Assembly (NCBI GenBank): GCA_023150845.1
Contig: JAKLKD010000015.1
Coordinates: forward strand, 1-52,766
Source: Myxococcota bacterium
GTDB taxonomy: Bacteria; Myxococcota_A; UBA796; CAJQPC01
Length of the DNA stretch: 52,766 bases
Reading direction: 5' to 3'
The notes under the pieces were generated by a model, which made no database searches, was not told where the DNA came from, and saw only the letters and a list, made by a program, of their open reading frames with translations. How positions within the stretch are numbered: position 1 is the stretch's first letter; every line of letters starts with the position of its first letter. Position numbers and translations under genes: made by a program. Shown here one piece after another: positions 7,414-52,622 of the stretch.

Positions 7414-8556
7414 CTAGCCCTTGAGCGCCTGGAGCGCCAGCCGCGCGGCCTCGGCCTCGATGGGGCCCGGGACCGTCATCTCGCCGGGGCTGAGGCGGCC
7501 TTGGCGGACGATCCACTCCAAGGTGAGGCCGAGCACGGCGAAGTGCAGGAGCACCGGCTCCGGGGAGCCCGCGTTCATGACGATGTTCAGGGGGTGACCG
7601 CCGCCGAGCACCGTGAGCCAGGGGCCCTTGGGCAGCTTGAGGCGCACGCAGCGGGGGCCGAGCTCATCGGCGCTCTCGGCCTGCTCACGCAGGGCCTTCA
7701 CGGCGATCTCGTCGCCGCCGTGGCCGGCGTTCACGAGCACGGCGCCGTTCTTGGCGTAGCGGAGCTGCTCAATCGTGAGGGCGTTCGGCACCCCCGTCGC
7801 GGTGACGATGATCTCCGCGCGGCTCAGGGCCTCCTCGATGGGCGCCGTGGAGTAGCCGTCGTAGTGGGCGATGAGGCTCTGCACCGGGTCCCGCTCGATG
7901 ACGGCGACCACGCCGCCCAGGGCCTTCGCGTAGGCGGCGATGCCTTGTCCGACGGGGCCATAGCCGATGACCAGCACCCGCCGCCCGCTCACCTGCAGGC
8001 CGGTGACCTGGGTGACCGAGGGCCAGAGCCCGGCGCCGACGCCGTGGCGGTTCTCGACGTGGCCCTTGAGCTTGCCGTCGTTGATGTTCACCACGCCGAA
8101 GGGAACGTCGACGTCGCGCAGGCGGTTGATGCCCGTCCGGGTGATCTCGACCGCGCCGATCAGGCCCTCGGCGAGATCGGGGCGGCGGCGCACGAGGGTG
8201 TCCAAGAGGTCGAAGCCGACGTCGGCGATGAGGTGCGGGCGGCTCTCCAGGGCGGCGAGGTGCGGGTTCACCATGTCCCCGCCGGTGTGGACCTCAACGC
8301 CCTCCTCCCGGAGCAGGGCCACCACGTCAAGGTCCGTCGTGGCCGCGTTCGCCGCGCTGACGACCCAGTCCCCGCCGCCTAAGGTCAGCTCGCGGAGCAG
8401 GGCCGCGGTGAGCGTGGTGAGGTGGGCGTTGACGGCTACCCGCATGCCTTGGAACGGCCGCTGCTTCGCCCAGCGGGTGCCCAGGAGCGGCATCAAGGGG
8501 AAAAAGGTGTTCATGCGGGCCACCTCGGCGGCGGCGCGGGTGCTGCGCGGTTCCAT
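7414..8556 (-). CDS. S-adenosylhomocysteine hydrolase-like paralogue
   Basis: A 380-residue protein related to SAHH but about 40 residues shorter than ahcY across the gap. The NAD-binding fold is present (VLVIGYGPVGQGIAAYAKALG), as are NAGHGGDEI, matching NTGHYDCEI of ahcY, and the substrate-domain pieces NAHLTT, IADVGFDLL and INDGKLK. Several catalytic-site residues differ. The Asp of FDN is Glu (VEN). The GHPS histidine near the C-terminus is replaced in NAGSPEP. The C-terminal KYRY-type tail that completes the neighbouring NAD site is absent. It may act on another nucleoside or be a regulatory subunit. ATG 8556 is used because GGAGG lies just upstream. It heads the minus-strand operon. Confidence 0.75.
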   Translation of the reverse strand: MEPRSTRAAAEVARMNTFFPLMPLLGTRWAKQRPFQGMRVAVNAHLTTLTAALLRELTLGGGDWVVSAANAATTDLDVVALLREEGVEVHTGGDMVNPHLAALESRPHLIADVGFDLLDTLVRRRPDLAEGLIGAVEITRTGINRLRDVDVPFGVVNINDGKLKGHVENRHGVGAGLWPSVTQVTGLQVSGRRVLVIGYGPVGQGIAAYAKALGGVVAVIERDPVQSLIAHYDGYSTAPIEEALSRAEIIVTATGVPNALTIEQLRYAKNGAVLVNAGHGGDEIAVKALREQAESADELGPRCVRLKLPKGPWLTVLGGGHPLNIVMNAGSPEPVLLHFAVLGLTLEWIVRQGRLSPGEMTVPGPIEAEAARLALQALKG

Positions 8557-8643
8557 GATGCCTCCAGGGCCCGACGGGGCCGTCAACTTGAACCGTATCT
8601 TAACCCACAACGCCGGTCGCGCCCCTCAGCGTCCGCCCGTAGA

Positions 8644-8672
8644 TTGACAGGCGGCAGGCCCCCCGTCATATT
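8644..8672 (+). promoter_or_regulatory. Sigma-70-type promoter of ahcY
   Basis: A perfect -35 box TTGACA (8644-8649) and a -10 box CATATT (8667-8672) are separated by exactly 17 bases, ending 47 bases before the ahcY ATG. No SAH-riboswitch-like sequence was recognised in the short leader. Confidence 0.75.
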
Positions 8673-8719
8673 GCCCCACCTCTCTGTAGCTACACCCCCC
8701 AAAGAACTGGAGCGCGGCG

Positions 8720-9979
8720 ATGTCCGACAACTTTAAGGTCGCAGACCTCTCTCTCGCTGAGGCCGGCAAGCTCAAGATCGAGTGGGCCGAGGCCCGCATG
8801 CCCGTCCTGATGGCCCTTCGCGAGAAGTATCGTCAGACCAAGCCGCTGGCCGGCCACCGCGTCGCGGGCTGCCTGCACGTCACCAAAGAGACGGCGGTGC
8901 TCATCCGCACCCTCATCGCGGCGGGCGCCGAGGTGAGCTGGTCGGGCTGCAACCCGCTCTCCACCTCGGACGAGATCGCCGCGGCCCTGGCCGCCGAGGG
9001 CGTCTCCATCTACGCCTGGCACGGCCTGAGCGTCGAGGAGTTCTACTGGTGCATCGACCGCACGCTGGACTTCAAGCCCACCCTGACGCTCGACGACGGC
9101 GCGGACCTCATCACCCGCCTGCACACCAAGCACCAGGACCTCATCCCCTACGTCGTCGGCGGCACTGAAGAGACGACGACCGGCGTGCACCGCCTGCGCT
9201 CGATGGCGAAGGCCGGCGCCCTCAAGTACCCCGTGCTCGCCATCAACGACGCCGAGACGAAGTGGGACTTCGACAACGTCTACGGCACCGGCCAGTCCTC
9301 CCTCGACGGCATCCTGCGCGCCACCTCGGTGCTCATCGCCGCCAAGAACTTCGTCGTCGCGGGCTACGGCCACTGCGGCCGCGGCGTCGCCATGCGCGCC
9401 CAGGGCCTCGGCGCCCACGTCGCCTGCACGGAGATCAAGCCCACCCAGGCGCTCAAGGCCACCCTCGAGGGCATCCGCGTCATGAAGATGGACGAGGCCG
9501 CGGGCTGGGGTGACATCTTCATCACCGCCACGGGCATGAAGGACATCATCGTCGGCGACCACTTCGACAAGATGAAGGACGGCGCGATCCTCTGCAACAC
9601 CGGGCACTACGACTGCGAGATCAACCTCGGTCACCTCGAGGCCAAGTCCAAGTCCAAGCGCACGATCCGCGACAACTGCGAGGAGTACCTGCAGCACGAC
9701 GGCCGCCGCATCTACGTCATCGGCCAGGGCCGCCTCGTGAACCTCGCCGCCGCCGAGGGCCACCCCTCGGAGGTGATGGACATGAGCTTCGCCAACCAGT
9801 TCTTGGGCATGGTGTTCATGGCCGAGAACGGCAAGGGCCTCGAGGGCAAGGTGTACGACATCCCGCCCGAGCAGGACCAGGAGCTCGCCCGCATCAAGCT
9901 CGGCACGATGGGCATCGCCATCGACTCGCTCACCCCCGAGCAGGTCGCCTACGCCGACAACTACCTCGAAGGGACTTGA
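8720..9979 (+). CDS. ahcY: Adenosylhomocysteinase
   Basis: A 419-residue SAHH that splits S-adenosylhomocysteine into adenosine and homocysteine in the activated methyl cycle, using bound NAD. Motifs are complete: CLHVTKETAVL (catalytic His), the Asp of LDDGADL, GTEETTTGVHRL, INDAETKWDFDNVYGTGQS (Lys and Asp), the NAD fold FVVAGYGHCGRG, CNTGHYDCEI, and GQGRLVNLAAAEGHPS. The C-terminal QVAYADNY tail supplies the neighbouring NAD site. The start has GGAG at the right distance. It is divergent from an SAHH-like paralogue and has its own consensus promoter. Confidence 0.97.
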   Translation: MSDNFKVADLSLAEAGKLKIEWAEARMPVLMALREKYRQTKPLAGHRVAGCLHVTKETAVLIRTLIAAGAEVSWSGCNPLSTSDEIAAALAAEGVSIYAWHGLSVEEFYWCIDRTLDFKPTLTLDDGADLITRLHTKHQDLIPYVVGGTEETTTGVHRLRSMAKAGALKYPVLAINDAETKWDFDNVYGTGQSSLDGILRATSVLIAAKNFVVAGYGHCGRGVAMRAQGLGAHVACTEIKPTQALKATLEGIRVMKMDEAAGWGDIFITATGMKDIIVGDHFDKMKDGAILCNTGHYDCEINLGHLEAKSKSKRTIRDNCEEYLQHDGRRIYVIGQGRLVNLAAAEGHPSEVMDMSFANQFLGMVFMAENGKGLEGKVYDIPPEQDQELARIKLGTMGIAIDSLTPEQVAYADNYLEGT

Positions 9980-31438: not shown

Positions 31439-33415
31439 TCAGATGTTGATCGACATCGGCACCTGGCTGGGGTGCAGGTAGGGGTACTGCCGCCTGCGCT
31501 GCCGGTTGCGGGAGTCGATGGTGCGCCCGACGGCGCGGAGCTTCGTCTGGTGCGCCTTGAGCAGCGGGGCCACCCGGGGGTCCTCAAACCAGCCCTCCTC
31601 GTACTCGCCGAGGGCGGTGTGGTGCACGTTGCCCAGGAGGTAGCCGAGGTTGAGCTGGATGAGCGCCTGCTCCAAGGTCGGCAAGGCGTTGAGGAAGTCG
31701 GCCTCGGTGGCCCGCAGGTTGGTCGCGGGCGGGGCGTAGAGCGCGAGGGGGAAGTTCGCGGCCTCGGACATCACCGGGTACTGCGGGAAGTTCACCGCGG
31801 CGTGCTGGGCGCTCGCCGTGAAGAGGATGGTGGTGAGGGTCTGGATGAGGTTGCCGCGGGTCTTCACCCGGGGGATGCCGAAGCCTGCGACCCGGCCGCC
31901 GAACTTCGAGCCCAGCTCCCGCGCCCACTCCAGGAGCTCGGCGTCGGCGGCGATGGCGGCGTCGTTGCTGTAGTAGAGGCGGACGTAGCTCGTCACCCAG
32001 GCGTGCAGGGCGTCCCAGAGGAGCAGGGCGTCGTCGCGGTAGGGGAACTCGGGGAGGTCGTTCACGCCGCGTTTGGCCAAGGCCACGGGCAGGGCGCGCT
32101 CGCTGAAGGGGGTGCCGGTGACGGCCTGGGCGGCGGCGGCGCGGCTGGCCTCGATGGTGCCGCTCATGAGGCGATCGACGGTGCCGCCGGGGGCGATGAG
32201 CGCGCTGTGGGCCGAGTTGTTGATGAAGATCGTGCCCTCAAAGTGCGGGCGCAGGAGCTTGTAGAGGGGGTGATCGACGCTGAGGTGGCGCTCGGTGGCG
32301 ACGGCGAAGGGCTCGATGACGAGGTGGGTGTCACCGAGGTGGGCGACGGCCTCATGCAGGTTGCCGTCGGCGACCTGCACGGCGAGCTTGGCGAGGTTCC
32401 AGGCCCAGCCGTCCCGGGGGCCGAAGGCCGGGGCCCCGGCGCGCTGCTCCACCTGAATCGCCACAGGCCGGGGGAGCTTGTTGCCCTCCCGCACGACGAA
32501 GAGCGCGATGGGGGCGGGCACAAACTTGGGCAGGGGGAAGGTGCCCGAGGGCATGGCCTCCAGCGACCTGTAGTCGCAGACGTAGAGCCTGCCCTCGCGC
32601 AGGGCGTCCTCGATGGACTCGCCGAGCTGGGCGGCCTTCTTGTTGAGCAGGCTGGCCTGGCCCTCAAAGGCGTCGGGGAGCGCCGTGGCCTTCCGGATGA
32701 CCATCGGGTTCGGCCCGGCGAGGCGCAGCCAGGCGAACTCGTTGTCTTGGAGCACCCCCTCACGCTGGCCGGGGCAGGGCACGCTCACGAAGAGGCGGCG
32801 CAGCTCGTCGAGGCTCGTCGCCCGGCCGCTGATGACGCCGACGGCGGCCTGATCGGAGAGGTCGGAGATCACCTTCTGCCAGGGCGTGCCGAGGAGCGAT
32901 GCGACGCGCTGGCCGGCCTCATGGCGGGTCTGACGGCGGGTCGCACGCGCCCCTTGGCCGAAGAGGCCCACACGCTCCACGGGCTCGGACGCTTGGGCGG
33001 CGCTCTGCTGGGCGGCGCTCTGCTGGGCCTCGTCACGCCGGGGGAAGAAGCCCTGGGGGGGGCGGTCGAGGAGGTGGTCGTCCTCGTGGTCGGGCTCCAC
33101 CTCGATCCTGTCGTCTACCCCGTCCTCCTCGACGGTCACCCGCAGGCTCGTGATCGCCGACATACGCTCCAGGGTGGGGTTCGGGGTGGTGCCCTCCCGG
33201 ACGCTCAGGGCCTTGAGGTTGCCGACGAGCAGCTCCGCCGTGGCGAGCACCTTCTTCCACCAGGCCCAGCTCGGCGCGTGATCGATGGGGACGTCGTGGG
33301 AGATGCCGAGCCCAGCGACGTGCTCATAGTTGTAGCGCACCTTGGCCTGGCGCCGCTTGAGGCGCCTTGCGCGACGCGCGGGGGACTTGTCTTCCTGGGG
33401 TAGACAGGTGGGCAT
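31439..33415 (-). CDS. Bacterial lipoxygenase
   Basis: A 658-residue lipoxygenase, which dioxygenates polyunsaturated fatty acids. The non-heme iron ligands are all visible: H354 and H359 in NLHEAVAHLGDTHLV, H538 and N542 in QHAAVNFPQYPV, and the C-terminal isoleucine I658 of SINI. HPLYKLLRPHFEGTIFINN is the conserved region after the first two His. The first 170 residues are low-complexity and lysine/arginine-rich with a QQSAAQQSAAQ stretch, not a PLAT domain. No signal peptide is seen with ATG 33415, chosen over the longer frame by the adjacent GGAGAG. It lies 49 bases after the kinase gene on the same strand. Confidence 0.93.
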   Translation of the reverse strand: MPTCLPQEDKSPARRARRLKRRQAKVRYNYEHVAGLGISHDVPIDHAPSWAWWKKVLATAELLVGNLKALSVREGTTPNPTLERMSAITSLRVTVEEDGVDDRIEVEPDHEDDHLLDRPPQGFFPRRDEAQQSAAQQSAAQASEPVERVGLFGQGARATRRQTRHEAGQRVASLLGTPWQKVISDLSDQAAVGVISGRATSLDELRRLFVSVPCPGQREGVLQDNEFAWLRLAGPNPMVIRKATALPDAFEGQASLLNKKAAQLGESIEDALREGRLYVCDYRSLEAMPSGTFPLPKFVPAPIALFVVREGNKLPRPVAIQVEQRAGAPAFGPRDGWAWNLAKLAVQVADGNLHEAVAHLGDTHLVIEPFAVATERHLSVDHPLYKLLRPHFEGTIFINNSAHSALIAPGGTVDRLMSGTIEASRAAAAQAVTGTPFSERALPVALAKRGVNDLPEFPYRDDALLLWDALHAWVTSYVRLYYSNDAAIAADAELLEWARELGSKFGGRVAGFGIPRVKTRGNLIQTLTTILFTASAQHAAVNFPQYPVMSEAANFPLALYAPPATNLRATEADFLNALPTLEQALIQLNLGYLLGNVHHTALGEYEEGWFEDPRVAPLLKAHQTKLRAVGRTIDSRNRQRRRQYPYLHPSQVPMSINI

Positions 33416-33464
33416 GGTCTCTCCGAGGCGGTGGGGGGTCGCTCGGCGGCCATTTATCGCGTTT

Positions 33465-36400
33465 TCAACGCAGGAGCGCGCCAATCGCGGCGTCGTCACG
33501 GCTCACCATCCACCTCGCGCGGGCGCGCGCCCGGAGGTCGTCCTCAGCGCCAGCGGCGACCGCGGCGTCTTGGGCGGCGTGCAGGCGCTCCCACCAGCCG
33601 AGCCGCGCGAGGGCGCGGGCGCGGGCGATCACCCCCTGTCTCAGGTCGGCGACGGCCTCCGCCCAGCGGGTGTGCATCGTGAGGGGCAAGACCGCGATCC
33701 CGCCGTCCGCCCCTGTCGAGAGCAAAGCGGCGCCATCGGGGGTGAAGCAGAGGTTGAGCGCGGGGCCGATGTGCTGGGCCTCCGCGCGCAGACGCTCCCC
33801 CGTCGAGGGGTCCCAGAGCATCACGCGCTCGGAGAAGCCCGCCGTCGCCAAGAGCGCGCCGTCGGGGGAGAAGGCGACGGCCATGGTCGGCCCGCTGTCC
33901 GCTTGCAGGGTGCTGGTGAGCACGCCGCGCTGGAGGTCCCAGAGCTCGACCTCACCGCGTTGGTTGCCGACCGCCAGGGTGCGACCGTCGGGGGAGACGG
34001 CGTGGTGGTAGGCCGGGGCGCCGCCGCTGAGGCGTTGCACCACGGCGCCGGTGTCGAGGTCGATGACGAGGCGCTCGCCGTCGGAGTCGAGGTGCCCGGC
34101 GATGACCACCCGCGCGGGGCTGAGGATCGTCGTGTCCCAGCTCGCGCCCTTGAGGTGCACGCCGAGCCGCCGGGTCGCGCCGTCGTCGGGGTTGATCACC
34201 CACAACGCGCCGTCTCCGGTGACGGTCACGAGCCGGTCTGGGCCCGACCAGTCGACGGCGACCACCTTGTGCGGCATCGGCACCACACGCTCGGCCTGCC
34301 CCGTCGCGGCCGTGAGCAGGATGATGCCCTCCTCACGCTTCGCGACGGCGAGGCGGCGGCCGTCTGGGGAGAACTTCACCTGACGCGCCGCCTGATCCGT
34401 CGCGCCCTGCCAGCGCCAGAGCGCCGCCCCCGTGGGCAGGTCGGCGAGGGTCACCACGCCGTCGTCGTCGGTGACGGCGACCCGCTCCCCGTCCGGGGAG
34501 ACCGCGACCCCTTGGCTCGTCACCTCGGTGAGCGGCACCCGCCGCCCGCCTCGGATGGGGCGCAAGAAGACGTGGACCTCCCCCGAGGTCCCGCCCAGGG
34601 CGATGATCCGGGCGTCCTCGCTCGTGGCCACGGTGTTCACCTGCGCTGGGCCGACGAAGTGGTGCTCACCGACGCCGTCCCGAAGGTTGAACACCGTCAG
34701 CGCGCCGTCGAAGCCCAGCCGCCAGCCCAGGCGCCCGCCGGGAGCGACCCCGACGAGGCGGGTGGGGTCGCCCCGCAGCGTCCACAACGCCGCCTGTGTG
34801 TCTACGCTCAGCGCCTCCACGAGCGCTGAGCTGGCGACGAGCGCGACGGAGCGGTCGTCGGTGACCGCGACGTCGTTCGCGCCCATGCTGCGGAGCTTCT
34901 CGACGCCGTCCACCCACACCCCTCCCGCGTGGGGGTCGGACCCCGTCGTGACGGCGAGGGCGACGGCGGGGGAGGGCCCAGGCGTCCAGCGCGCCACGCC
35001 TGGCTCTGGCAGGGGCTCAAGCGCGCCGTTGACGACCTGGAAGGCGCCGCCCACCCCGTCGGCGACCCAGGGCCCCGCGTCGTTGAACCCCACGCGCCAG
35101 GGCCGCGTGGCGCTGGGGATGAGCGCGGACCAGCCCTCACCGAGGCGGCCGAGCATCACGCCCCCCTCGACGGCGACGATCACCTGGTCGCCCTCGGCGT
35201 CGGCGCGGGCGGCCGCGGCGAAGGCGGGCAGGCTCAGCGCCAAGGCGCCGCGCTCCTCGCAGTCGGCGAGATCCCAGGCCACGAGGCGGCCGTCGGCGCC
35301 AAAGCTCAGGGCGCGCTGGTGGTCGGGGCCCAGGCCCAAGGCGAGGACCGCGGCGTTGCCGTGGGGTCGGCAGGTCGCGACGGGCAGGGGGCCGTCGAGG
35401 GTGTGCGCCGAGCGCGCGAGGTCCAGCGCGCGCCGGTCCACCCGGGCGCGGTTGGACGGGCTCGTCTCGGCCAGGGCCCGCTCAGCGTCCGCCAAGGCGC
35501 GGGCGGCCTCGGCGTGCTCCCCTTGGAGGACCAGGGCGTCGGCGCGTCCCACCTGGGCACGAAGCAGGCCGCGGAGGGCCTCAAGCTCGGCTTGCCTCGC
35601 CCGCTCCGCCTCGGCGACGGCGTCGTCGCGGGCCTCGCCGACGGCGCGTGTGTACTGCCCCACCCCCAGCAACAGGACGAGCAAGGCCGCGGCGCCGACG
35701 GCCCCGGCGGCGCGCACGGCGCCGCGGTGCCGGGTGGCCCACTTCGTGAGGCGCTCCGCCCAGGTGGAGCGCAGGCCGACGAGGGGGCGGTGGTCGAGCA
35801 CGGCGTCGATGTCGGCGCGCAGGGCGAGCACGCTCGGGTAGCGGTCCTCGGGCCGCGGGCTCATGGCGCGGAGGATGATCGCCTCAAGCTCCCGAGAGAC
35901 GGTGGGGCGCCGCCGTCGCGGCGGCTGAAGCGCACCTTGGCGCACCTGGGCCAGCACCTCCTTCGTGGGCCCGGCGAAGGGCGGCGCGCGCACCATGAGC
36001 TCGTAGAGCACGGCGCCGAGGCCATAGACGTCGGTGCGAGCGTCCAAGCTGTCCAGGGCCCCGGCCACCTGCTCTGGGGCCATGTAGGCTGGGGTGCCCG
36101 CCACCTGGCTGCCGCCCTCGGGGGCGCGGCCCATGCTGTAGGCGAGGCCCCAGTCCAGGAGCGTCACCTCGCCGAACTCGCCGATCATGACGTTCTCAGG
36201 CTTGATGTCGCGGTGCAGCACGCCCCGGGAGTGGGCGAAGGCGACGGCGTCGCAGACCTTCCTGAAGAGCTCCAAGGCGTCGCGGGGGTGGAGCTGGTCG
36301 GAGAGCGCGGAGAGCGAGCGGCCCCGCACCCACTTCATGACGAGGAAGGGCCGCCCTTCTTCATCGACCCCGATGTCGTGGACGGGCACGACGTTGGGGT

Positions 36401-42211: not shown

Positions 42212-42339
42212 GATTCAGCCGCCAGGGTTGTAGCGAAGAAGCCTATCTCCGCTTGGCGTCGCCGTGTAGCCGTCGATGAAGAACCGACTCCTGTAGAATC
42301 GGGTTAAAGCGCCCACTGCGCCCTCTCCTCGGAGCCACG

Positions 42340-43557
42340 ATGCCCGCTCAAGCCCCTGACGTCTGGGTCTACGACAGCGTCCGCACCCCCCGAGGGCGCG
42401 GCAAAGACAACGGCAGCCTCTACACCACCCGGCCCGTGCGCCTGCTCTCCGGCGCGCTCGACGGGCTGAAGGCCCGGACGGGCCTCGCCGCTGACGCCGT
42501 GGACGACCTCGTCATCGGCTGCGTCACCCAGGTGAGCGACCAGGGCGCGTGTATCGCCCGCACCGCGGCCCTGCTCTCGGGCTTCGGGCAGCACCTGCCC
42601 GGCGTCACGCTGAACCGCTTCTGCGGCTCGGGCTTGGAGGCCATCAACCACGCGGCGGCGATGGTGGGCTCGGGCCTGCACGACCTCGTGTTGGCGGGCG
42701 GCGTGGAGAGCATGTCCCGGGTGCCCATGGGCTCCGACGGCGGCGCGCTCTTTGACTCGGACCTCGTGCTGGAGGTCGGCATCGTGCCCCAGGGCATCTC
42801 CGCCGACCTGCTGGCCACCCTGCGGGGCATCACCCGGGAGGACGCCGACCGCTTCGCCGCCGAGAGCCAGCGCCGCGCCGCCGCCGCCATGGCCGCCGGG
42901 GCCTTCTCCCGCTCGATCCTCCCGGTGATCGATCAGAACGGCCTCGTGGTGCTCGCCACGGACGAGCTCCCCCGGCCAGAGACCACCGCCGAGAAGCTCG
43001 CCAAGCTCAACCCGTCCTTCGCGATGATGGGCGAGCAGTTCGGCCTCGACGCCCTCACCCGTAAGGTCTACCCCCAGGTTGAGCGCGTGAACCACATTCA
43101 CCACGCGGGCAACTCCTCGGGCATCGTCGATGGGGCGGCCGTCGCGCTCATCGGGCACCGGGAGGCCGGGGAGCGCCACGGGCTCAAGCCGCGGGCCCGG
43201 ATCCGCGCCGTCGCCACGGTGGGTGACGAGCCCGTGCTCATGCTCGCCGGGCCCATGCCCGCCACGGAGCGCGCGCTCAAGAAGGCCGGGATGTCCATCG
43301 GCGACATCGACCTCTTTGAGGTGAACGAGGCCTTCGCCGCCGTGCCCTTGGCCTTCATGCAGCACTTTGGCCTCGACGACAGCCGGGTGAACGTCAACGG
43401 CGGCGCCATCGCCTTGGGGCACCCCTTGGGCGCCACCGGGGCGATGCTCTTGGGCACGGCGCTCGACGCCCTGGAGGACCGGGGCCTCTCCACCGCGCTC
43501 ATCACGCTGTGCATCGGCGGCGGCATGGGCGTCGCCACCATCATCGAGCGGGTGTGA
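42340..43557 (+). CDS. fadA: Acetyl-CoA acyltransferase (thiolase)
   Basis: A 405-residue thiolase. The nucleophilic Cys is in [10 protein letters not shown], the active-site His is in [15 protein letters not shown], and the second Cys is in LCIGGGMG. It has the [10 protein letters not shown] motif. It catalyses the last step of beta-oxidation, cleaving 3-ketoacyl-CoA with CoA. It precedes the FadB-like gene by two bases, so the pair works as a beta-oxidation complex. A TAGAAT at 42294-42299 could be a -10 element, without a clear -35. The fadA symbol is by position beside fadB; fadI cannot be excluded. Confidence 0.9.
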
Positions 43558-43559
43558 CC

Positions 43560-45701
43560 ATGGCCACCGAGACCCTCCCCGTCAGCGCCCCCGGCGTCAC
43601 CGTCACCTTCGACCCCGAGGACGGCGTCGCCGTCGTCACCTTGGCCCTGCCGGGCAAGGTGAACAAGATCAACCCCGCCTTCGGGGCCGCCCTCGCCGCG
43701 GGCCTCGACGCCGCCTTTGGCGCCAAGGGCCTCAAGGGCGTGATCTTGGCCTCGGGCCACAAAGACTTCTGCGTCGGCGCGGACATCGACGTGGTCTACG
43801 CCTCTCGGGATCCCAAAGAGATCCTCGCCGTCGTCGGCCAGCTCAACGCGGGCTACCGGCGCATCGAGACCTCCGGGAAGCCCGTCGTCGCCGCGCTCAC
43901 CGGCTCGGCCTTGGGCGGGGGCTATGAGCTGGCCTTGGCCTGCCACCACCGCATCGCTTTGGACAGCCCCAAGGTGCTCGTCGGGCTCCCCGAGGTCAAC
44001 CTCGGCCTCATCCCCGGCGCCGGGGGCACCCAGCGGCTCCCGTACCTCTTGGGGCTCCAGGAGGCCGTGCAGCACATCGCCCAGGCCCAGCCCGTGCGGG
44101 CGCCCAAGGCCGTGAAGGCCGGGCTCATCGACGCCTTGGCCCCCGACCGCGACGCCTTGTTCGCCGCCGCCCGGGCCTGGATCGCCGCCAACCCCTCGCC
44201 CAAGCAGCCCTGGGATACAAGAACTCCGCTGCCCGGCGGGGTCCAGCCCGGCACCGAGGCCGCGCGCACCTTGGCCGTAGGCGCCGCGGCGTTCTTGTTC
44301 TCCAAGACCGCGGGCTGTTACCCCGCGGCTGAAGCGGCGCTGCGCTGCGTGTTTGAGGGCACCCGCCTCTCCTTTGAGCGTGGCCTAGAGATCGAGAGCC
44401 GGGCCTTCGCCAAGCTCGCCACGTCAGACCAGGCGAAGGACATGATCCGCACGCTCTGGTTCGGCAAGAACGCCGCCGACAAACAGGAGGGCCTGCCCCA
44501 GACCGCGGACGCCCGGTTCACCAAGGTGGCGATCTTGGGCGCGGGCATGATGGGCGGTGGGCTCGCGTTCTTGGCCACGAAGGCCGGGCTTGAGGTCGTG
44601 GTGCGCGACATCCGCGAGGAGGCGCTCCAGGCCGCCCGGGCCCGGGTCGAGGAGCAGGCCGGGAAGCTCCGGCACCTCAGCGCCCAGGAGCGCGCCGAGC
44701 TCGTGGGCCGGGTGACCTTCACCCTCGATCTTGAGCCCCTGCGCGGCGCGGACCTCGTGATCGAGGCCGTCGTCGAGAACCTCAAGGTCAAACATCAGGT
44801 CATCCGTGAGGTCGAGCCCCTGCTCGCTGAAGGCGCCGTCTTCGCGTCGAACACCTCAGCGATCCCCATCACCCGCCTCGCTGAAGCCGCGGTGAACAAG
44901 GACCGCTTCATCGGCCTGCACTTCTTCTCCCCCGTCGAGAAGATGCCGCTCTTGGAGGTCATCCAGCCGGGCTTCACCAGCGAGGACACCCTCGCCCGCT
45001 GCCTGAGCTTCGGCCGGGCCATCGGTAAGACCTGCGTGGTCGTGAACGACGGCTACGGCTTCTTCACGACGCGGCTGTTCGCGGCGTACTTGCTGGAGGG
45101 CTGCCAGCTCGTCGCCGAGGGCCACGACCCGGTGCTCGTCGAGTGGGCCGCCCGCAGCCTGGGCATGGTGATGTCGCCTCTCAAGGTGTTTGACGAGGTC
45201 ACCCTGACCTTGGGCATGCACGCCTTCACCACCCGGGAGGCGGTCCTGGGTGAGAAGCTCGACCTCGCGGGCCTGGAGCTCGTGCGGGCGGTCGTCGCCG
45301 CCGGGCGCACGGGCAAAGCCGCCGGGGCGGGCTTCTACGACTACGAGCACCCCCGGCGCATCTGGCCCGGGCTCAAGGACCTGGTCAAGGCCGAGACCCC
45401 GGCGGAGACCGGCGTGGCCCACCTCCAGCGCCGCCTGATGCTCGCGCAGCTCGCCGAGCTGGGGCGGGTGCTCGACGACGGCGTCCTGCGCAAGGCCATC
45501 GACGCCGACGTTGGCGCGATCTTGGGCCTCGGCTTCGCCCCGAACACCGGCGGGCCGCTCTCCTGGGCCGACCGGCAGGGCCTGCCCCAGCTCGTCGCCG
45601 AGATGGACACGATGGCGGCGCGGTACGGCGCCCGCTACGCGCCGTCGGCGACCTACCGGAAGATGGCGGCCGAGGGCGCCCGCTTCCATGAGGGGCCGTG
45701 A
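43560..45701 (+). CDS. fadB: FadB-like multifunctional beta-oxidation enzyme
   Basis: A 713-residue bifunctional protein. N-terminal enoyl-CoA hydratase: [18 protein letters not shown] and [20 protein letters not shown] (the two catalytic Glu). C-terminal hydroxyacyl-CoA dehydrogenase: NAD motif [18 protein letters not shown], the catalytic His of [17 protein letters not shown], and the [15 protein letters not shown] linker, then a second helical domain. It hydrates and dehydrogenates in beta-oxidation. Its stop codon shares a base with the start of the encapsulated ferritin gene (TGATG), so the two are translationally coupled. Confidence 0.93.
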
Positions 45702-46060
45702 TGCCCAGCGACGCGGACCTCCTCCGCCACGTCATGGCCCGGGAGTGTGAGACGGTCAACGAGTACCTGGCGATGGCCGAGCAGGCCCAGTCGCCCGAGG
45801 TCAAGGGCCTACTCCTGCACCTCGCGTATGAGGAGAAGGAGCACATCGCCGTCTGCGTGAAGGAACTCCTCAAGCTCGACGCCGACCACAAGATGTGGAT
45901 GGAGAAGGTCCACGCGCCCGTTGACGCCGAAGGACGGCGGCTCAACACCTCGGCCTCAGGGGATCACGGCCCCGGGGCGAGCAGCAACCCGAGCGTCGGA
46001 GGGCCCGTCTCGGCGTCTCCGGCGAAGCCTCAGTTCACCATCGGCAGCCTCATCCGCTGA
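45701..46060 (+). CDS. Encapsulated ferritin-like cargo protein (EncFtn)
   Basis: A 119-residue protein. Gap-free comparison with the Rhodospirillum EncFtn places the ferroxidase residues as E15 (E32), E17 (E34), Y22 (Y39), E45 (E62) and H48 (H65); the EEKEH core is identical. Residues 75-110 are a disordered Gly/Ser/Pro linker. The C-terminus ends FTIGSLIR, a good match to encapsulin targeting peptides such as LTVGSLRR and LGIGSLKK. EncFtn forms decamers that oxidise iron inside the shell. Its ATG overlaps the FadB stop, and the shell gene follows 12 bases later. Confidence 0.88.
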   Translation: MPSDADLLRHVMARECETVNEYLAMAEQAQSPEVKGLLLHLAYEEKEHIAVCVKELLKLDADHKMWMEKVHAPVDAEGRRLNTSASGDHGPGASSNPSVGGPVSASPAKPQFTIGSLIR

Positions 46061-46072
46061 GAGGGTCACCCC

Positions 46073-46924
46073 ATGAACCAGTTCTCGAACCACAACGACA
46101 ACCCGCTCAACGAGGCCGAGTTCCGCCGGGTGCACGACGCGGTCATCGAGGCCGCCAAACGTCGCCTCATCGGCCGCCGGTTCATCGAGCTCTACGGCCC
46201 CATGGGCCCGGGCGTGCAGGCCATCGCTTATGACGAGTTCACCGGCACGGACAGCGGCCAGCTCGACCTGCTCGGCGAGTCCTCGCCGACGCGCATCTTC
46301 ACCGACCAGCGCCGCTTCCGCACCATCCCCATCCTCTACAAGGACTTCGTGCTCCATTGGCGCGACCTGGAGATGGCCCGGCAGCTCAACATGCCCCTGG
46401 ACGTCTCCGCGGCGGCGGGCGCGGCGTCGTGGTGCGCTGAGCGTGAGGACCAGCTCATCTTCTACGGCGACGAGAAGCTGGGCTACGAGGGCCTGATGAA
46501 CCACCCCCAGCGCCAGGTGGCGCCGCTCACCGACGGCTGGGGCCGGGCCGGGGCGGCGTTCCGGGACGTCGTGAACGCCGCGGAGAAGCTCTTTGAGGCC
46601 GGGCACTACGGGCCCTACGCCTTGGTCTGCTCGCCGCGGCTCTACGCGAACCTGCACCGGCTCTGGGAGGACTCCCGCACCATGGAGCTCGACAACGTGC
46701 GCCGGGTGATCGAGGGGGAGGTCTTCCAGTCCAACGTGCTGCGCGGCAACGCCGCCGTGCTCGTCTCGAAGGGCCAAGAGAACCTCGACCTCGCCGTGTC
46801 CATCGACATGACCACGGCCTACCTGGGCGCCGAGCGCATGAACCACCCCTTCCGGGTGCTGGAGGCGCTGATCTTGCGCATCAAGCACCCCGACGCGATC
46901 TGCACCATCGAGGCCGGGCCCTAA
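46073..46924 (+). CDS. Family-1 encapsulin shell protein
   Basis: A 283-residue encapsulin (linocin/HK97-fold) shell protein that assembles into a hollow icosahedral compartment. Hallmarks are the N-terminal helix with LNEAEFRRVHDAVIEAAKRRLIGRRFIELYGPMGPGVQAI, the E-loop region TDQRRFRTIPILYKDFVLHWRDLE, the ALVCSPRLYANLHRL segment in the A-domain, and VSKGQENLDLAVSIDMTTAYLG near the C-terminus. Length is normal for family 1. It is the last gene of the thiolase-FadB-EncFtn operon, and a hairpin overlaps the end of the convergent gene downstream. Confidence 0.94.
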   Translation: MNQFSNHNDNPLNEAEFRRVHDAVIEAAKRRLIGRRFIELYGPMGPGVQAIAYDEFTGTDSGQLDLLGESSPTRIFTDQRRFRTIPILYKDFVLHWRDLEMARQLNMPLDVSAAAGAASWCAEREDQLIFYGDEKLGYEGLMNHPQRQVAPLTDGWGRAGAAFRDVVNAAEKLFEAGHYGPYALVCSPRLYANLHRLWEDSRTMELDNVRRVIEGEVFQSNVLRGNAAVLVSKGQENLDLAVSIDMTTAYLGAERMNHPFRVLEALILRIKHPDAICTIEAGP

Positions 46925-46931
46925 GACGCCG

Positions 46932-46950
46932 GGCGGGCCTAGGCGCCGCC
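46932..46950. terminator. Hairpin between convergent encapsulin and DUF4351 genes
   Basis: GGCGGGCC (46932-46939) pairs with GGCGCCGCC (46942-46950) with one bulge. It lies 8 bases after the encapsulin stop and covers the stop codon of the minus-strand gene. Confidence 0.4.
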
Positions 46951-47253
46951 CTCATCGTCCGGAGGCGCCGCAAAGAAGGCCTCGGCGGTGGGGGCGGTGA
47001 AGATCAGGTCCACCCACCGATCGAGGCGCTCGGCGCTGGCCTCCGCGAGGGCGAGGTCATGCTCGGCGCGTAGGGGGCCGAAACGCTGGAGGAGGAGACG
47101 GCGGAGGAGGTCTCTCGCTGCTTCCTGCCAGCCCTCTTGCCAGCCCTCTTGCCAGGCCTCTTGCCGCCCCTCTCGCCTCCCCTCCTCACGCTCACGGTGC
47201 ATCCAGCTTACGACCAGCTCAGGCTCGTCGGCGACATCATCGATCCAGCTCAT
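46939..47253 (-). CDS. Decapitated Rpn C-terminal module, copy 3 (DUF4351-like)
   Basis: A 104-residue protein matching the end of the Rpn nuclease upstream. It begins MSWIDDVADE, then VVSWMHREREEGRREGRQ, a QEGW repeat, and a DUF4351-like domain (LLQRFGPLRAEHDLALAEASAERLDRWVDLIF). The nuclease domain is missing. ATG 47253 overlaps the stop of copy 2 by four bases. It is either a separately expressed subunit or debris of tandem duplication; the intact overlaps favour expression. Confidence 0.6.
   Translation of the reverse strand: MSWIDDVADEPELVVSWMHREREEGRREGRQEAWQEGWQEGWQEAARDLLRRLLLQRFGPLRAEHDLALAEASAERLDRWVDLIFTAPTAEAFFAAPPDDEGGA
47129..47188 (-). repeat. 12-bp coding repeat, short array
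   Basis: Five 12-base units (CAGCCCTCTTGC and variants on the plus strand) encode the EGWQ/EGRQ repeats of copy 3 on the minus strand. Confidence 0.75.
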
Positions 47254-47534
47254 GCGTCGCGCTTGTCTGGGGGCGCCTCGAAGAGGGCCTCGGCGGTGGG
47301 GACGGTGAAGAGCAGCTCCACCCAGTGAGCGAGGCGTTCGGAGCTGGCCTCCGCGAGGGCGAGCTCATGCTCGGGGCTTAGGGGCCCGAAGCGATGAAGG
47401 ACGGCGCGGCGGATAAACGTTTGCATCATCGAGAGGCTGTTTCTCCGTTCTTCTTGCCGTCCCTCCTCACGCTCACGCTGCATCCAGCTCACGACCTGCT
47501 CACGCTCGTCGGCGACATCATCGATCCAGCTCAT
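47250..47534 (-). CDS. Decapitated Rpn C-terminal module, copy 2 (DUF4351-like)
   Basis: A 94-residue protein with the same layout as copy 3 (MSWIDDVADE, VVSWMQREREEGRQE, LHRFGPLSPEHELALAEASSERLAHWVELLF). The EGRQ repeats are nearly gone, replaced by ERRNSLSMMQTF. It overlaps the Rpn stop (47531-47534) and the copy 3 start (47250-47253), so the three form one translationally coupled string. No nuclease domain is present. Confidence 0.6.
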   Translation of the reverse strand: MSWIDDVADEREQVVSWMQREREEGRQEERRNSLSMMQTFIRRAVLHRFGPLSPEHELALAEASSERLAHWVELLFTVPTAEALFEAPPDKRDA

Positions 47535-48580
47535 GCATCGCCTTCGCCCTTCGGGGGCGACCCGAGGAGGGCGTCAACGGTCGGCGCGCTGAGGAGCGTG
47601 TCTGCCCATCGGTCGAGACGGTCGGGCGTTGCCGCGGCGAGGGCTTGTTCGTGCTCAGGGCGCAGAGGGCCGAAGCGCTGGACGAGGAACCGGCGGATGA
47701 GCTCTCGAATCCCTTCGTACCGCCCCTCTTGCCGCCCCTCTTGCCGCCCCTCTTGCCGCCCCTCTTGCCGCCCCTCTTGTCTTCCCTCTTGTCTTCCCTC
47801 TTGTCTTCCCTCTTGCCGCCCCTCCTCACGCTCACGCTGCATCCAGCTCACGACCTGCTCACGCTCAGGGGGCTGAAGGAGTGCCACGGCCTGCTCCGTC
47901 TCCGCGGGGGTGACCCGCGACTGGTTGAGGTAGATGGCGTATTTTAACACGGCCGCGGCCCAGTGGTCGCCGCGCTCACGCAGCGCCCGCTCGTAGAGGG
48001 GCAGGTGCGCGTTGAGCAGCGGCATGGTCTGCCCCTCGTGGGCGTGGCGCAGCAGCAAGAGCGCCAGGCGGCCTCCCCCTTGGCCGGGGAGCTGGTCGTC
48101 GGGGGTGACGCTGAGATCCTCAAACCACAGCTCCAGCTCAGGGAGGTAAGGCTTGAGCCCAAGGACGGCCTCGGCTGGGGCGTCGTAGAGCTCGGAGAGG
48201 CGCCTCGGCGCCGTCCAGGGCCGCTCGCCGTGGGTGACCACGAGGGTCAACACCACGGGCAGGCGCGGCCCCTCGGCCTGGTCCCACACCCGCATCGCCG
48301 CGCGCAGCGCCCGGTACGGCATCTGGGGGTCGGGGCTCGACTGGTGCTCGATGAGCACGGTGAGGTGGGCGTAGCCCCCGGGCCGCCACGGCGCCTGGAA
48401 GTGCAGGTCCGGCGTGCGGGCGCGCAGCTCGGCGCTGTGGCGCTCCGGGGGCACGGCGACGAGGCCGTCGAGGTCGAGCAGCTTGAGCACGGCGGGCGGG
48501 AGCAGGTCCCGCAGCATCGCCGCGAGCTCGGCGGGCTCGCTGAACGTCAGCTTAAAGAGGGCGTCATGAGGTTGGGTCAT
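47531..48580 (-). CDS. Rpn-family PD-(D/E)XK nuclease/putative transposase
   Basis: A 349-residue protein of the Rpn (recombination-promoting nuclease, formerly Transposase_31) family. ATG 48580 begins HDALFKLTFSEPAELAAMLRDLLP. The nuclease core is visible as RTPDLHFQ and the LIEHQSSPDPQMPYRALRAAM segment (D and ExQ of the PD-(D/E)XK fold). A C-terminal charged stretch has about eight EGRQ repeats, then a DUF4351-like domain (FLVQRFGPLRPEHEQALAAATPDRLDRWADTLL). Rpn proteins nick or cut DNA and stimulate recombination. Two copies of its C-terminal module follow. Confidence 0.85.
   Translation of the reverse strand: MTQPHDALFKLTFSEPAELAAMLRDLLPPAVLKLLDLDGLVAVPPERHSAELRARTPDLHFQAPWRPGGYAHLTVLIEHQSSPDPQMPYRALRAAMRVWDQAEGPRLPVVLTLVVTHGERPWTAPRRLSELYDAPAEAVLGLKPYLPELELWFEDLSVTPDDQLPGQGGGRLALLLLRHAHEGQTMPLLNAHLPLYERALRERGDHWAAAVLKYAIYLNQSRVTPAETEQAVALLQPPEREQVVSWMQREREEGRQEGRQEGRQEGRQEGRQEGRQEGRQEGRQEGRYEGIRELIRRFLVQRFGPLRPEHEQALAAATPDRLDRWADTLLSAPTVDALLGSPPKGEGDA
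47721..47828 (-). repeat. 12-bp coding minisatellite in the Rpn gene
   Basis: Nine tandem 12-base units (CGCCCCTCTTGC on the plus strand, with CTTCCCTCTTGT variants) encode an EGRQ repeat on the minus strand. The unit preserves frame. It looks like a CRISPR-like array at first sight but has no spacers. Confidence 0.85.
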
Positions 48581-48636
48581 GCGCGCAGCATTAGCCCGGT
48601 GCTGGGCCTCAAACTGACCGGCGATCCGGTGAGGCG

Positions 48637-49557
48637 CTAATGTCGGCTCAGGATGGCGACGGCGAGCACCACGAGCCCGGCGCCGATGAGCTCCCGCGCC
48701 GAGGGGTAGTCCGCGCCGAGGGTCAAGGCCAAGATTGTCGTGGCGACCACCCCCGCGAGCACGCTCGCCGAGCGGTTCACCGGCACGGCGAAGCTTGACT
48801 CCCGGGGGTCCAAGAAGATGAGGGTGCCGAAGATGCCCGTGCCTTGGCTGAACACCCCCACGAGCAGGGCGAGGCCCAAGGCGAGGCCGGTGACGCCGCC
48901 GGTGAAGCCCTCCCGCAGGTGGCCCATCAAGGAGCCCTCGCCCCACAGCGCCAAGAGCCCCAACATCACCATGGTGAAGGGCGCGACCACGAGCTGCTCC
49001 TCGGCGAAGTAGCGCCGGGTGACGGCGGGGTCCGACGCTTTGCCAAGGCGGTCGATGAGCCGCAGGCGCACGAAGTACGCCGCGAGGTAGAGCCCGATGT
49101 CCAGGGCCGCGGCGGGGGAGAGCCCGAAGCCGTCCACCTCGGAGCTCGCCACGATCAAGGCCACACCACACAAGGCCAAGGCGACCCAGGCCGCCGGGCG
49201 CGGGCGCTTGTGGCTCAAGAGGTCCACGACCGGGGCGATGGCGAGCACCCCGCCGCGCATCAAGAGCATGGCGAAGACGATGGACACGCCCTCGAAGGTG
49301 TAGGCCAAGGTCGCCGTGACGAGGATGAGGGCGGTGCAGGCCCCGGAGAGCGCCGTCCAGCGGCTCGGCGCCGGGAGGCTCAGGCCGCCGAGCTGCACCC
49401 GCCCCGCGTCCCGCCACCAGCCCGAGCTGAACAAGAACACGAAGGTGACGACGACCGAGGCCACCGTCGACGCGGGCAAGATCGCCGCCCCATCGACGGC
49501 GGGCTGCCCCGGCACGAGCCCCGAGGACAAGGCCTTCGTGAGCGCGGTGAACGGCAC
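48637..49557 (-). CDS. DMT/EamA-like membrane transporter
   Basis: A protein of at least 306 residues with about nine or ten membrane helices in two related halves (TVASVVVTFVFLFSSGWW, LSGACTALILVTATLAYTF, AMLLMRGGVLAIAPVVDLL, AWVALALCGVALIVASS; later FTMVMLGLLALW, VTGLALGLALLVGVFSQG, VLAGVVATTILALTLG). RGGVLAIAPVVDLL is the conserved DMT pattern. The first GTG (49557) splits the first helix: in-frame codons upstream encode IWRAALLYFLCY, which completes it. A strong GGAGGTG at 49632-49638 precedes an in-frame ATC at 49626, so the true start may be non-canonical. The substrate is unknown. Confidence 0.75.
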   Translation of the reverse strand: MPFTALTKALSSGLVPGQPAVDGAAILPASTVASVVVTFVFLFSSGWWRDAGRVQLGGLSLPAPSRWTALSGACTALILVTATLAYTFEGVSIVFAMLLMRGGVLAIAPVVDLLSHKRPRPAAWVALALCGVALIVASSEVDGFGLSPAAALDIGLYLAAYFVRLRLIDRLGKASDPAVTRRYFAEEQLVVAPFTMVMLGLLALWGEGSLMGHLREGFTGGVTGLALGLALLVGVFSQGTGIFGTLIFLDPRESSFAVPVNRSASVLAGVVATTILALTLGADYPSARELIGAGLVVLAVAILSRH

Positions 49558-50006: not shown

Positions 50007-52622
50007 CTAGCCCGGCGGGGCGGAGAGCAGGTCGGCGGCGGCCAAGGGCGCGGCGACGGACCCCCGGAAGAGCGCGTAGACCTCGGAGCCCTCCGGCAGG
50101 CTGAGGTCCCCCTCGGTGAGCGCGGCGAAGACGGGGCCCTGCAGGGGCGGCAGGGCCTCGTGCAGGGTGTCGGCCTGGGCGTCGAGGATGCGGCGGAAGA
50201 GGCCGTGGCGGTCCTCGCAGGGGCGCCGGGTCAGCTCGCTGACCGCCCAGTCGCCTCGGGTGAGCACCCGCTGGGCCCGGGCCGCGGCGTGCAGCGCTCC
50301 GATCCGCAGCATGGTCGGGCGGTCCCCCCGGGCGTAGTAGCGCAGGAGCCGCGGGCAGACGGCCTGGATGTCCCGGCTGGAGGTCGCGACGTTGTTCATC
50401 GCGAGCTGGCCTTTGCGGGAGACGTCGAGCCAATGCACCCGCCGCGTCGCCAGATCGACGAGCAAAGGCATAAAGACGCCGTTGGGGCCGTCCAAGGCGA
50501 AGCGCAGGTGTACGGTCCGGGGGTCAAAGACGGCGCTCCCGTCGTCCTCCCGCACCATGAGCCCGGCGAAGGCCCGGGCGAGCTTCGAGAAGGGCGGGCC
50601 GAAGTAGGCGTTCACCACCATCACGGCGTAGCGCAGGCCCTGGGCGCGGGCGTTGTGCACCAGCAGGTCCACAAACTCCGAGGCCCCGTCGGGGTGGGGA
50701 GCCGAGGTGAAGTCCCCCGACGACCGGGCGACGGTGACCCCACCCAGCGCCAGCTTGAGCTTGTAGTAGGAGCAGACGTCCTTATAGGACCAGTCCTCGC
50801 CGTAGAAGCCGACGCTGAGGTCGAGGTCGGAGTAATCGGAGTCGTTGGGCTGCTGGCACCAGTGCATGAACAGGCGCGCCAAGGAGCCTTCGGGCAAGGG
50901 CAGGCTCGACCCCCGGGGCAGGTTCACCGCCGAGACGCTCGCCGTGCGCTCGTTGAAGGGCGCGACGATCTGGGCCAAGGACTCATCCAGCACGGCGTCC
51001 TGCACCGGGCTGAGCCGGGCCAAGCGGTCGAGCAAGACCCGCTCCAGGCCCTCGATGAGCGGGCCCGTGCGTGTGGCGTCGAGGAGCGGCCGGGTGTCCT
51101 TGGCTGAGGGCGCGATGAACAGCGGCGTGGCGGGGAAAAACACCCGATCCGGCCCGGGCTCGTGGCGGTGGGCGAGGGCCGTCGTGAGCGTGAGCAGCAT
51201 CGGCGTCGGCAGCCGCCTCGCCACGGCGAGGAGGGCCTCGTCGGGGGCGCGGCTCGTGGGGTCGAGGCGCAGGAGCAGGTCGAGGCGCCGGGCCAGTTCT
51301 CCGGGCCGGGCGCGGAGGTGGGCGGTGAGCCCGGCGACGTCCTTCGCCCGCAGCAGGCGCTCGGCCTCCCCGCGGAAGGTGCGCAGCGCCGGGCGGCCCT
51401 TGTTGTCGCGGCGCACATCCTCCGCGCCCTGCAGCAAGGAGTCGGCGAGCTCCCCCGTCGTGCCGCGGAGGGTCACGAAGGCCCGGGCGATGACCGGGAA
51501 GCGCTCGGCGTACTCATAGGGGTGGAGGCGCTCGCCGACCGCGCGCCAGAGGCTCTCATGGCGCTGGAGGTCTTCGGCGAGGGTGGCCTCGGGCAGCCCG
51601 TTGAGCAGGGCCAAGAGCGCCCGGCGCAGGGGGCGGCTCATCTTGGCGACATGCGAGCGCGGCGAGGTGACGAGCCGCTGGGTCATCGCCGGGATCTTGG
51701 CCTGGGTCTTGGTGTCCCAGCGCCGGTCGCCGCGCCGCATGGGGGCGGCCTTCCCCTTGGCCTGGAGGCTCACGTCGGCGCCGGAGTAGGCGGCGATCAC
51801 CCGCAGCAGGTCCGTGGCCGTCGTGAGCCGGGCGCCCAGCGCGTTGTGCAGCGCCGGGTCGTTGGGGTGGGCCCGCAAGAGCCCGCCGAGCACGATGGCG
51901 AGGTTCTCCTTGACCGGGATCGTCTCCGGCAGCCAGCCCAAGAGCGTGAGCCCCAGCTCGCTGACGAGGAGCTTGAGCGTGGTGACGTCGTCGGGGGTCA
52001 TGACCTGGGCCCGGGCGCAGAGGCGCTCCAGCAGCGTACGGGCCGTCGAGTCCTTCTCCGCGGGGAAGAGCACCTGGAGCTTGACCCAGCGCTCCGCCTG
52101 GCTCAGGGGTCGGGGGGCCTCCTCCGCGACGTAGTAGGGGGAGTCCCGGTCGAGCTTCACCCCACAGATCGGGCAGCCGTCCGTCTCCCCAGGCGTGAAG
52201 CAGTTGGTGCAGACGATGTGCCGGCAGGGGCGCAGGACGTGGGTCGTGGCCACGGCGCCGCAGTTGACGCAGGGCAGGTCCTCACGCTGGAGGTAATGAA
52301 CCAGGAGCCGCTTGACCCAGAGGGCGTAGGTGTCGTCGGGCACACCGTCGGGGAAGCGCCGGTACTGCGGCTTGTGTTTGACGCCCGCGCCCCGGTGCTC
52401 GGCGAGGGCCTTGGGCAGCCACTCGTAGAGCTCGGTGAGCGCTTGGGCCGAGCCGCCGCGCAGGCGCCTCACCAGGCCGTTGCTGAGGACGTAGCCGAGC
52501 TGGGCGACCTCGTCCGCCAAGGCGCCCACGGCGGCCTCGGTGGGCCGTTCGCCGGGGGCCTCGCCCTCCTCGGGCAGAAGCACGAGGCCATGACGGGCGG
52601 CGAGGGACGCGCGGAGGGTCAC
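50007..52622 (-). CDS. MXAN_6230/SCO0854-type RING protein with TerD-like domain
   Basis: An 871-residue protein. A complete C3HC4 RING sits at residues 118-153 (C118, C121, C133, H135, C138, C141, C150, C153). Long helical regions follow. Around residues 595-720 a TerD-like beta domain appears: DLDLSVGFYGEDWSYKDVC, then SGDFTSAPHPDGASEFVDLLV and LRYAVMVVNAYFG, the pattern of TerD calcium-binding folds. RING domains act as ubiquitin ligases in eukaryotes; a bacterial substrate is unknown. The architecture fits the MXAN_6230/SCO0854 family I recall. An EF-hand gene follows. Confidence 0.78.
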   Translation of the reverse strand: MTLRASLAARHGLVLLPEEGEAPGERPTEAAVGALADEVAQLGYVLSNGLVRRLRGGSAQALTELYEWLPKALAEHRGAGVKHKPQYRRFPDGVPDDTYALWVKRLLVHYLQREDLPCVNCGAVATTHVLRPCRHIVCTNCFTPGETDGCPICGVKLDRDSPYYVAEEAPRPLSQAERWVKLQVLFPAEKDSTARTLLERLCARAQVMTPDDVTTLKLLVSELGLTLLGWLPETIPVKENLAIVLGGLLRAHPNDPALHNALGARLTTATDLLRVIAAYSGADVSLQAKGKAAPMRRGDRRWDTKTQAKIPAMTQRLVTSPRSHVAKMSRPLRRALLALLNGLPEATLAEDLQRHESLWRAVGERLHPYEYAERFPVIARAFVTLRGTTGELADSLLQGAEDVRRDNKGRPALRTFRGEAERLLRAKDVAGLTAHLRARPGELARRLDLLLRLDPTSRAPDEALLAVARRLPTPMLLTLTTALAHRHEPGPDRVFFPATPLFIAPSAKDTRPLLDATRTGPLIEGLERVLLDRLARLSPVQDAVLDESLAQIVAPFNERTASVSAVNLPRGSSLPLPEGSLARLFMHWCQQPNDSDYSDLDLSVGFYGEDWSYKDVCSYYKLKLALGGVTVARSSGDFTSAPHPDGASEFVDLLVHNARAQGLRYAVMVVNAYFGPPFSKLARAFAGLMVREDDGSAVFDPRTVHLRFALDGPNGVFMPLLVDLATRRVHWLDVSRKGQLAMNNVATSSRDIQAVCPRLLRYYARGDRPTMLRIGALHAAARAQRVLTRGDWAVSELTRRPCEDRHGLFRRILDAQADTLHEALPPLQGPVFAALTEGDLSLPEGSEVYALFRGSVAAPLAAADLLSAPPG

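What the first reader, a model, noticed from the sequence alone, without database searches (positions are those of the whole stretch)
42340..46924. Beta-oxidation genes translationally coupled to an encapsulin iron-storage compartment
Thiolase, FadB-like enzyme, EncFtn and encapsulin form one tight string: 2-base gap, TGATG overlap, 12-base gap. EncFtn keeps all five metal-site residues and ends in a targeting peptide (FTIGSLIR, with an inserted Ile compared with GSLR). I do not know of encapsulin systems coupled to fadAB. It may link fatty-acid breakdown, for example in starvation or development, with iron sequestration against oxidative stress. A rarer idea is that a beta-oxidation enzyme is also cargo, but no targeting peptide is seen at its end (RFHEGP).
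Basis: partly seen in the sequence, partly recalled or inferred. Interest (0 to 1): 0.75.

Follow-up and report, generated by a model that had tools for sequence, protein, structure and literature searches.

The report
Iron-storage encapsulin behind fatty-acid oxidation genes
A bacterium of the Myxococcota carries a familiar protein-shelled iron store whose two genes sit directly behind, and overlap, a pair of fatty-acid breakdown genes; the iron store is of a known kind, and only the neighbourhood, seen so far in one genus, is unusual.

Summary
The four genes are really there, in the order and spacing described: thiolase (42340-43557), FadB/FadJ-like (43560-45701), ferritin-like cargo (45701-46060, one-base TGATG overlap) and family 1 encapsulin (46073-46924). 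The shell is close to Myxococcus xanthus EncA (E 1e-112). The cargo is EncB-like rather than canonical EncFtn, with the ferroxidase ligands intact. Its tail FTIGSLIR is an ordinary targeting peptide; the Ile is not an insertion. The whole string, junctions included, is kept in a second species of the genus that differs at 20-25% of four-fold sites, so it is not unique to one genome. Elsewhere the two halves are separate: no other Myxococcota locus fetched with this shell has fadAB beside it, while fadAB is a recurrent pair in the order without encapsulin. Within the class (71 genomes held) this shell type occurs only in this genus, and the shell and FadB have different nearest relatives. Best reading: a standard EncA/EncB iron-storage cassette became appended to the 3' end of a resident fadAB operon and shares its transcript. 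Co-expression is likely but unproven, and a metabolic link is speculative. FadA or FadB as cargo has no support.

The parts
42340..43557 (+). fadA-like thiolase, 405 aa (acetyl-CoA C-acetyltransferase, PRK08242 type)
   Evidence: Pfam Thiolase_N/C; NF006090 616 bits, cut-off 514
43560..45701 (+). fadB/fadJ-like fatty-acid oxidation complex alpha subunit, 713 aa; the only match at E<=1e-60 in this genome
   Evidence: Pfam ECH_1, 3HCDH_N, 3HCDH; best NCBIfam PRK11154 FadJ 548 bits, below its cut-off 869
45701..46060 (+). EncB-like ferritin-like cargo, 119 aa; helices at residues 4-28 and 32-59, low-confidence linker about residues 84-107
   Evidence: 7s5k/7s5c EncB E 3.5e-11; AlphaFold model matches EncB, rmsd 0.7-0.8 over about 64 residues
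46034..46057 (+). C-terminal targeting peptide FTIGSLIR
   Evidence: sequence; aligned TVGSL-type tails in cargos of other Myxococcota; the only genome match of the tail pattern T[IVM]GxLxx-stop
46073..46924 (+). family 1 encapsulin shell protein, EncA type, 283 aa
   Evidence: NF041155 267.6 bits, cut-off 100; M. xanthus EncA E 1.4e-112
45699..45703 (+). TGATG stop/start overlap, fadB to cargo; GAGG-type ribosome-binding site just upstream
   Evidence: sequence; conserved in G001
42293..42299 (+). GTAGAAT, conserved -10-like box upstream of fadA (candidate promoter, weak)
   Evidence: kept in G001; not detected by the sigma-70 scan

Best explanation
The two downstream genes encode an ordinary EncA/EncB-type iron-storage nanocompartment. 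The cargo is expected to oligomerise with its ferroxidase centre (E15, E45, H48, with Y22) at subunit interfaces, to be pulled into the icosahedral shell by its C-terminal FTIGSLIR peptide, and to oxidise and deposit iron there (inferred from EncB/EncFtn). In this genus the cassette has become joined to the 3' end of a resident, order-wide fadAB operon. It is therefore most likely transcribed with fadAB, with cargo translation partly coupled to fadB by the TGATG overlap. Shown: gene content, junctions, conservation in a sister species, and separate occurrence of the halves elsewhere. Inferred: shared transcript, shell assembly and iron storage. Not shown: any metabolic interaction between beta-oxidation and iron.
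For: Families and structure. Junctions and four-gene order kept in G001 at 20-25% four-fold divergence. encB-like-enc adjacency, with a targeting peptide at the cargo C-terminus, recurs in eleven other Myxococcota genomes of several families without fadAB. fadA-fadB adjacency recurs in the order without enc: in 8 of 9 loci examined fadA is next to fadB, and in 5 of 9 the next gene after fadB is on the opposite strand. In the class (71 genomes) only the two genomes of this genus hold this shell type. The shell tree joins the genus to family f13, not of its class (99/98 support), while f13 FadB is only 34-37% identical, against up to 59-63% in the order. No sigma-70-like promoter was found inside the string.
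Against: No transcript data. The promoter scan only covers sigma-70 and would miss an internal promoter in fadB. Two overlapping + strand terminator-like sites lie inside fadB (44274-44293), with poor T tails, so full read-through into the cassette is not certain. The cargo scores below the curated cut-offs of the EncB family models. Differential loss instead of transfer is not excluded for the origin.
Confidence: 0.8

Rival explanations
1. The coupling is functional: fatty-acid breakdown (in starvation or lipid use) raises peroxide load, and the cell makes the iron store on the same mRNA to limit Fenton chemistry.
For: Overlap and order conserved between two species; encapsulin expression in M. 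xanthus is reported to rise in starvation and the system to act against oxidative stress (PMC12693112).
Against: Restricted to one genus. fadAB elsewhere in the order lacks it and encapsulins elsewhere lack fadAB. No acyl-CoA dehydrogenase or oxidase, the step that could feed peroxide formation, is in the string.
Confidence: 0.12
2. Pure proximity: the cassette has its own promoter within fadB and is regulated independently of fadAB.
For: In relatives the cassette stands behind unrelated genes, so it can carry its own control.
Against: One-base overlap kept in both species; no promoter-like site found, though the scan is weak for this organism.
Confidence: 0.15
3. FadA or FadB is itself packaged in the shell.
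For: Adjacency only.
Against: FadB ends RFHEGP and thiolase ends IIERV, without a targeting motif. The tail pattern occurs in the genome only at the end of the ferritin-like protein. FadA and FadB occur in encapsulin-free relatives.
Confidence: 0.02

Closest known systems
Myxococcus xanthus EncA/EncB/EncC encapsulin system
   Same: Shell is EncA type (E 1e-112); cargo is EncB-like in sequence and fold; encA and encB carry consecutive locus numbers there (MXAN_3556, MXAN_3557); TVGS-type C-terminal peptide.
   Different: Here a fadAB pair is coupled upstream. No EncC-like second ferritin cargo was found in the genome with the cargo as query. The cargo is shorter, 119 aa against 158 aa in the review's table for EncB.
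Rhodospirillum rubrum and Haliangium ochraceum EncFtn-encapsulin systems
   Same: Two-helix ferritin-like protein with equivalents of E32, E34, Y39, E62, H65 and a C-terminal targeting peptide.
   Different: Lower sequence similarity (E about 0.006 to R. rubrum EncFtn), E31 replaced by Arg, shell of the EncA subgroup.
fadAB (fadIJ) fatty-acid oxidation operons of the same order
   Same: Same two genes, adjacent, in the same order.
   Different: In the nine order relatives examined nothing related to encapsulin follows fadB.

Membership tests
Family 1 encapsulin shell (EncA type) | family 1 shell sequence above curated cut-off | tested here: met
   NF041155 267.6 bits vs 100; Linocin_M18 207.8 vs 24.3; EncA E 1.4e-112
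Family 1 encapsulin shell (EncA type) | cargo gene next to the shell gene with C-terminal targeting peptide | tested here: met
   cargo ends FTIGSLIR, 12 bases before enc
Family 1 encapsulin shell (EncA type) | assembles an icosahedral shell | not testable with these tools
   needs purification and electron microscopy
EncB family ferritin-like cargo | score above the curated NCBIfam cut-off | tested here: not met
   NF058679 57.6 bits vs 90; NF058678 63.3 vs 210; hence called EncB-like, not EncB
EncB family ferritin-like cargo | EncB fold | tested here: met
   model matches 7s5c/7s5k at rmsd 0.7-0.8 over 59-66 residues, TMt 0.93-0.96, best Foldseek E 6e-3
EncFtn/EncB ferroxidases | ferroxidase ligands Glu32, Glu62, His65 with Tyr39; HxxxEExEH motif | tested here: met
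   E15, E45, H48, Y22; H40-L-A-Y-E-E-K-E-H48; literature roles
EncFtn/EncB ferroxidases | ferroxidase activity and iron storage | not testable with these tools
   needs an assay
FadAB fatty-acid oxidation complex | thiolase plus hydratase/dehydrogenase fusion, adjacent | tested here: met
   Pfam domains and spacing; FadJ/FadB equivalog cut-offs are not reached

The most novel reading that the evidence does not exclude
In this genus an encapsulin iron store has become a dedicated, co-translated part of the beta-oxidation operon, so that iron sequestration is tied to lipid breakdown; this would be a first metabolic coupling of this kind for a family 1 encapsulin.
Probability: 0.12. Interest if true: 0.55.

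Novelty: new member of a known kind. Interest (0 to 1): 0.3.

Why it matters
It adds an EncA/EncB system from a class of the Myxococcota where this shell type is otherwise absent in the genomes held, and gives a clear case of an encapsulin cassette placed behind a housekeeping metabolic operon. If co-regulation is real it would suggest when the cell needs the iron store. As it stands it is mainly a lineage-specific operon rearrangement.

Tried and rejected
FadB or thiolase as cargo: no targeting peptide, and the genome-wide pattern search found only the ferritin-like protein; the pattern covers only T[IVM]GxLxx-stop tails, so cargos with other tails would be missed. A second ferritin-like cargo like EncC: none found at a meaningful E-value with the cargo as query. 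Co-inheritance of fadAB and enc from one f13-like donor: rejected because f13 FadB is a distant homologue. Contamination or misassembly as the cause: rejected because a separately assembled MAG of another species has the same string and the same upstream flank. Unique to this genome: rejected. The one genome-contig scan gave only four loci because its patterns came from a single sequence. The sigma-70 scan was uninformative.

Full report
What is there. The four genes lie on the + strand exactly as described: thiolase 42340-43557, FadB-like 43560-45701, ferritin-like cargo 45701-46060, encapsulin 46073-46924. The gaps are 2 bases, a one-base stop/start overlap (TGATG), and 12 bases. Pfam and NCBIfam agree with the gene names. 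The thiolase passes the PRK08242 acetyl-CoA C-acetyltransferase cut-off. The FadB-like protein is nearest to FadJ/FadB but below those equivalog cut-offs. The shell passes the family 1 encapsulin model with ease.

The shell and cargo. The shell matches M. xanthus EncA over its whole length (E 1.4e-112). The cargo is EncB-like: the best solved structures are M. xanthus EncB (E 3.5e-11), with EncC and the EncFtn proteins behind. It stays below the curated cut-offs of the EncB models. A model made with eleven relatives has two confident long helices (residues 4-28 and 32-59) and matches EncB at 0.7-0.8 A over about 64 residues; the Foldseek E-values are modest, 6e-3 at best, for so short a domain. 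The positions equivalent to E32, E34, Y39, E62 and H65 are E15, E17, Y22, E45 and H48. The E31 position is Arg, and the review says Ala or Arg occur there (PMC11202242). The motif HxxxEExEH is complete.

The targeting peptide. The cargo ends FTIGSLIR. Relatives end in TVGSLFR, TVGSLKRR, TVGSLRAR and similar, and the review lists TVGSLI for IMEF cargo. So the Ile sits at a variable position and nothing is inserted. A genome-wide search for the tail pattern T[IVM]GxLxx followed by a stop found only this gene, with none in the reversed control. FadB and the thiolase have no such tail.

Conservation of the string. The same four genes with the same junctions occur in a second species of the genus, G001, whose contig (9918 bases) corresponds to public record JAKLKE010000215.1, isolate MAG.430. 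Amino-acid identities are 96% (thiolase), 95% (FadB), 82% (cargo) and 98% (shell); 20-25% of four-fold sites differ. The two genes upstream of fadA are also shared. The arrangement is therefore not an assembly error and not unique to one genome.

The halves elsewhere. I searched the shell against 379 genomes of the phylum, all 71 held of the class, and three further class-level sets. In the loci fetched, the EncB-like cargo and the shell are neighbours in families f13, f24 and f28 and in two named MAGs, but none has thiolase or FadB next to them. The neighbours there are unrelated, for example MurJ, an LCM methyltransferase, PEGA proteins and an alpha/beta hydrolase. Conversely, fadA-fadB is a recurrent pair in the order, and what follows fadB varies and is often on the opposite strand. 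Within the class only this genus has this shell type; G048 has a shell of another clade, 40% identical.

Origin. The shell tree joins the genus with f13, a family outside its class (99/98 support). FadB is closest to FadB of its own order (59-63% for the best) and only 34-37% identical to that of f13. The two halves therefore have different histories, consistent with an encB-enc cassette, perhaps acquired horizontally, landing behind a resident fadAB. Loss in all other class members is the alternative and is not excluded.

How it probably works. By homology with EncA/EncB, the cargo oxidises ferrous iron and the shell holds the mineral. The overlap suggests translational coupling to fadB and a shared message (established knowledge of bacterial gene overlaps), though no promoter or transcript evidence was obtained; the sigma-70 scan found nothing in the region, not even where fadA should have its promoter, so it is uninformative. 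The idea that lipid breakdown and iron sequestration are linked is attractive but rests on adjacency in one genus. I found no paper describing such coupling in the library held: searches with thiolase, fatty acid and beta-oxidation gave none. Most subscription papers are not held.

Verdict. Observation confirmed; interpretation partly supported. The compartment is a new member of a known kind in an unusual, genus-specific operon.

Noticed in passing
L058:2605-2775 (G001): A 171-base element with 31-nt inverted-repeat ends (90% complementary) sits between the -10-like box and fadA in the sister species and is absent in the window. Many similar copies and fragments are in G001 (32 matches, both strands) and a few in G000, so it looks like a MITE family.
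   Followed up: partly
G000:C179 (L084:7413-8228): A second, distant encapsulin (27% identical), 271 aa, next to a DEAD-box-helicase-like gene and without an obvious adjacent cargo; G001 has one too.
   Followed up: partly
L073 (G330), gene upstream of the shell: The protein before the encapsulin ends with repeated TVGDLR motifs, suggesting several targeting peptides in one cargo.
   Followed up: no
46939-49417: Three consecutive minus-strand ORFs of similar sequence; the largest is a YhgA-like Transposase_31 protein containing a 12-base tandem repeat CCGCCCCTCTTG, 8.8 copies at 47720-47824.
   Followed up: no
31439-33499: A bacterial lipoxygenase gene (Pfam 8e-63), about 9 kb from the fadAB string.
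   Followed up: no
50007-52622: An 871-aa protein with a prokaryotic RING finger domain (Prok-RING_4).
   Followed up: no
7414-9979: Two divergent S-adenosylhomocysteine hydrolase-like genes, the minus-strand one matching mainly the NAD-binding domain.
   Followed up: no
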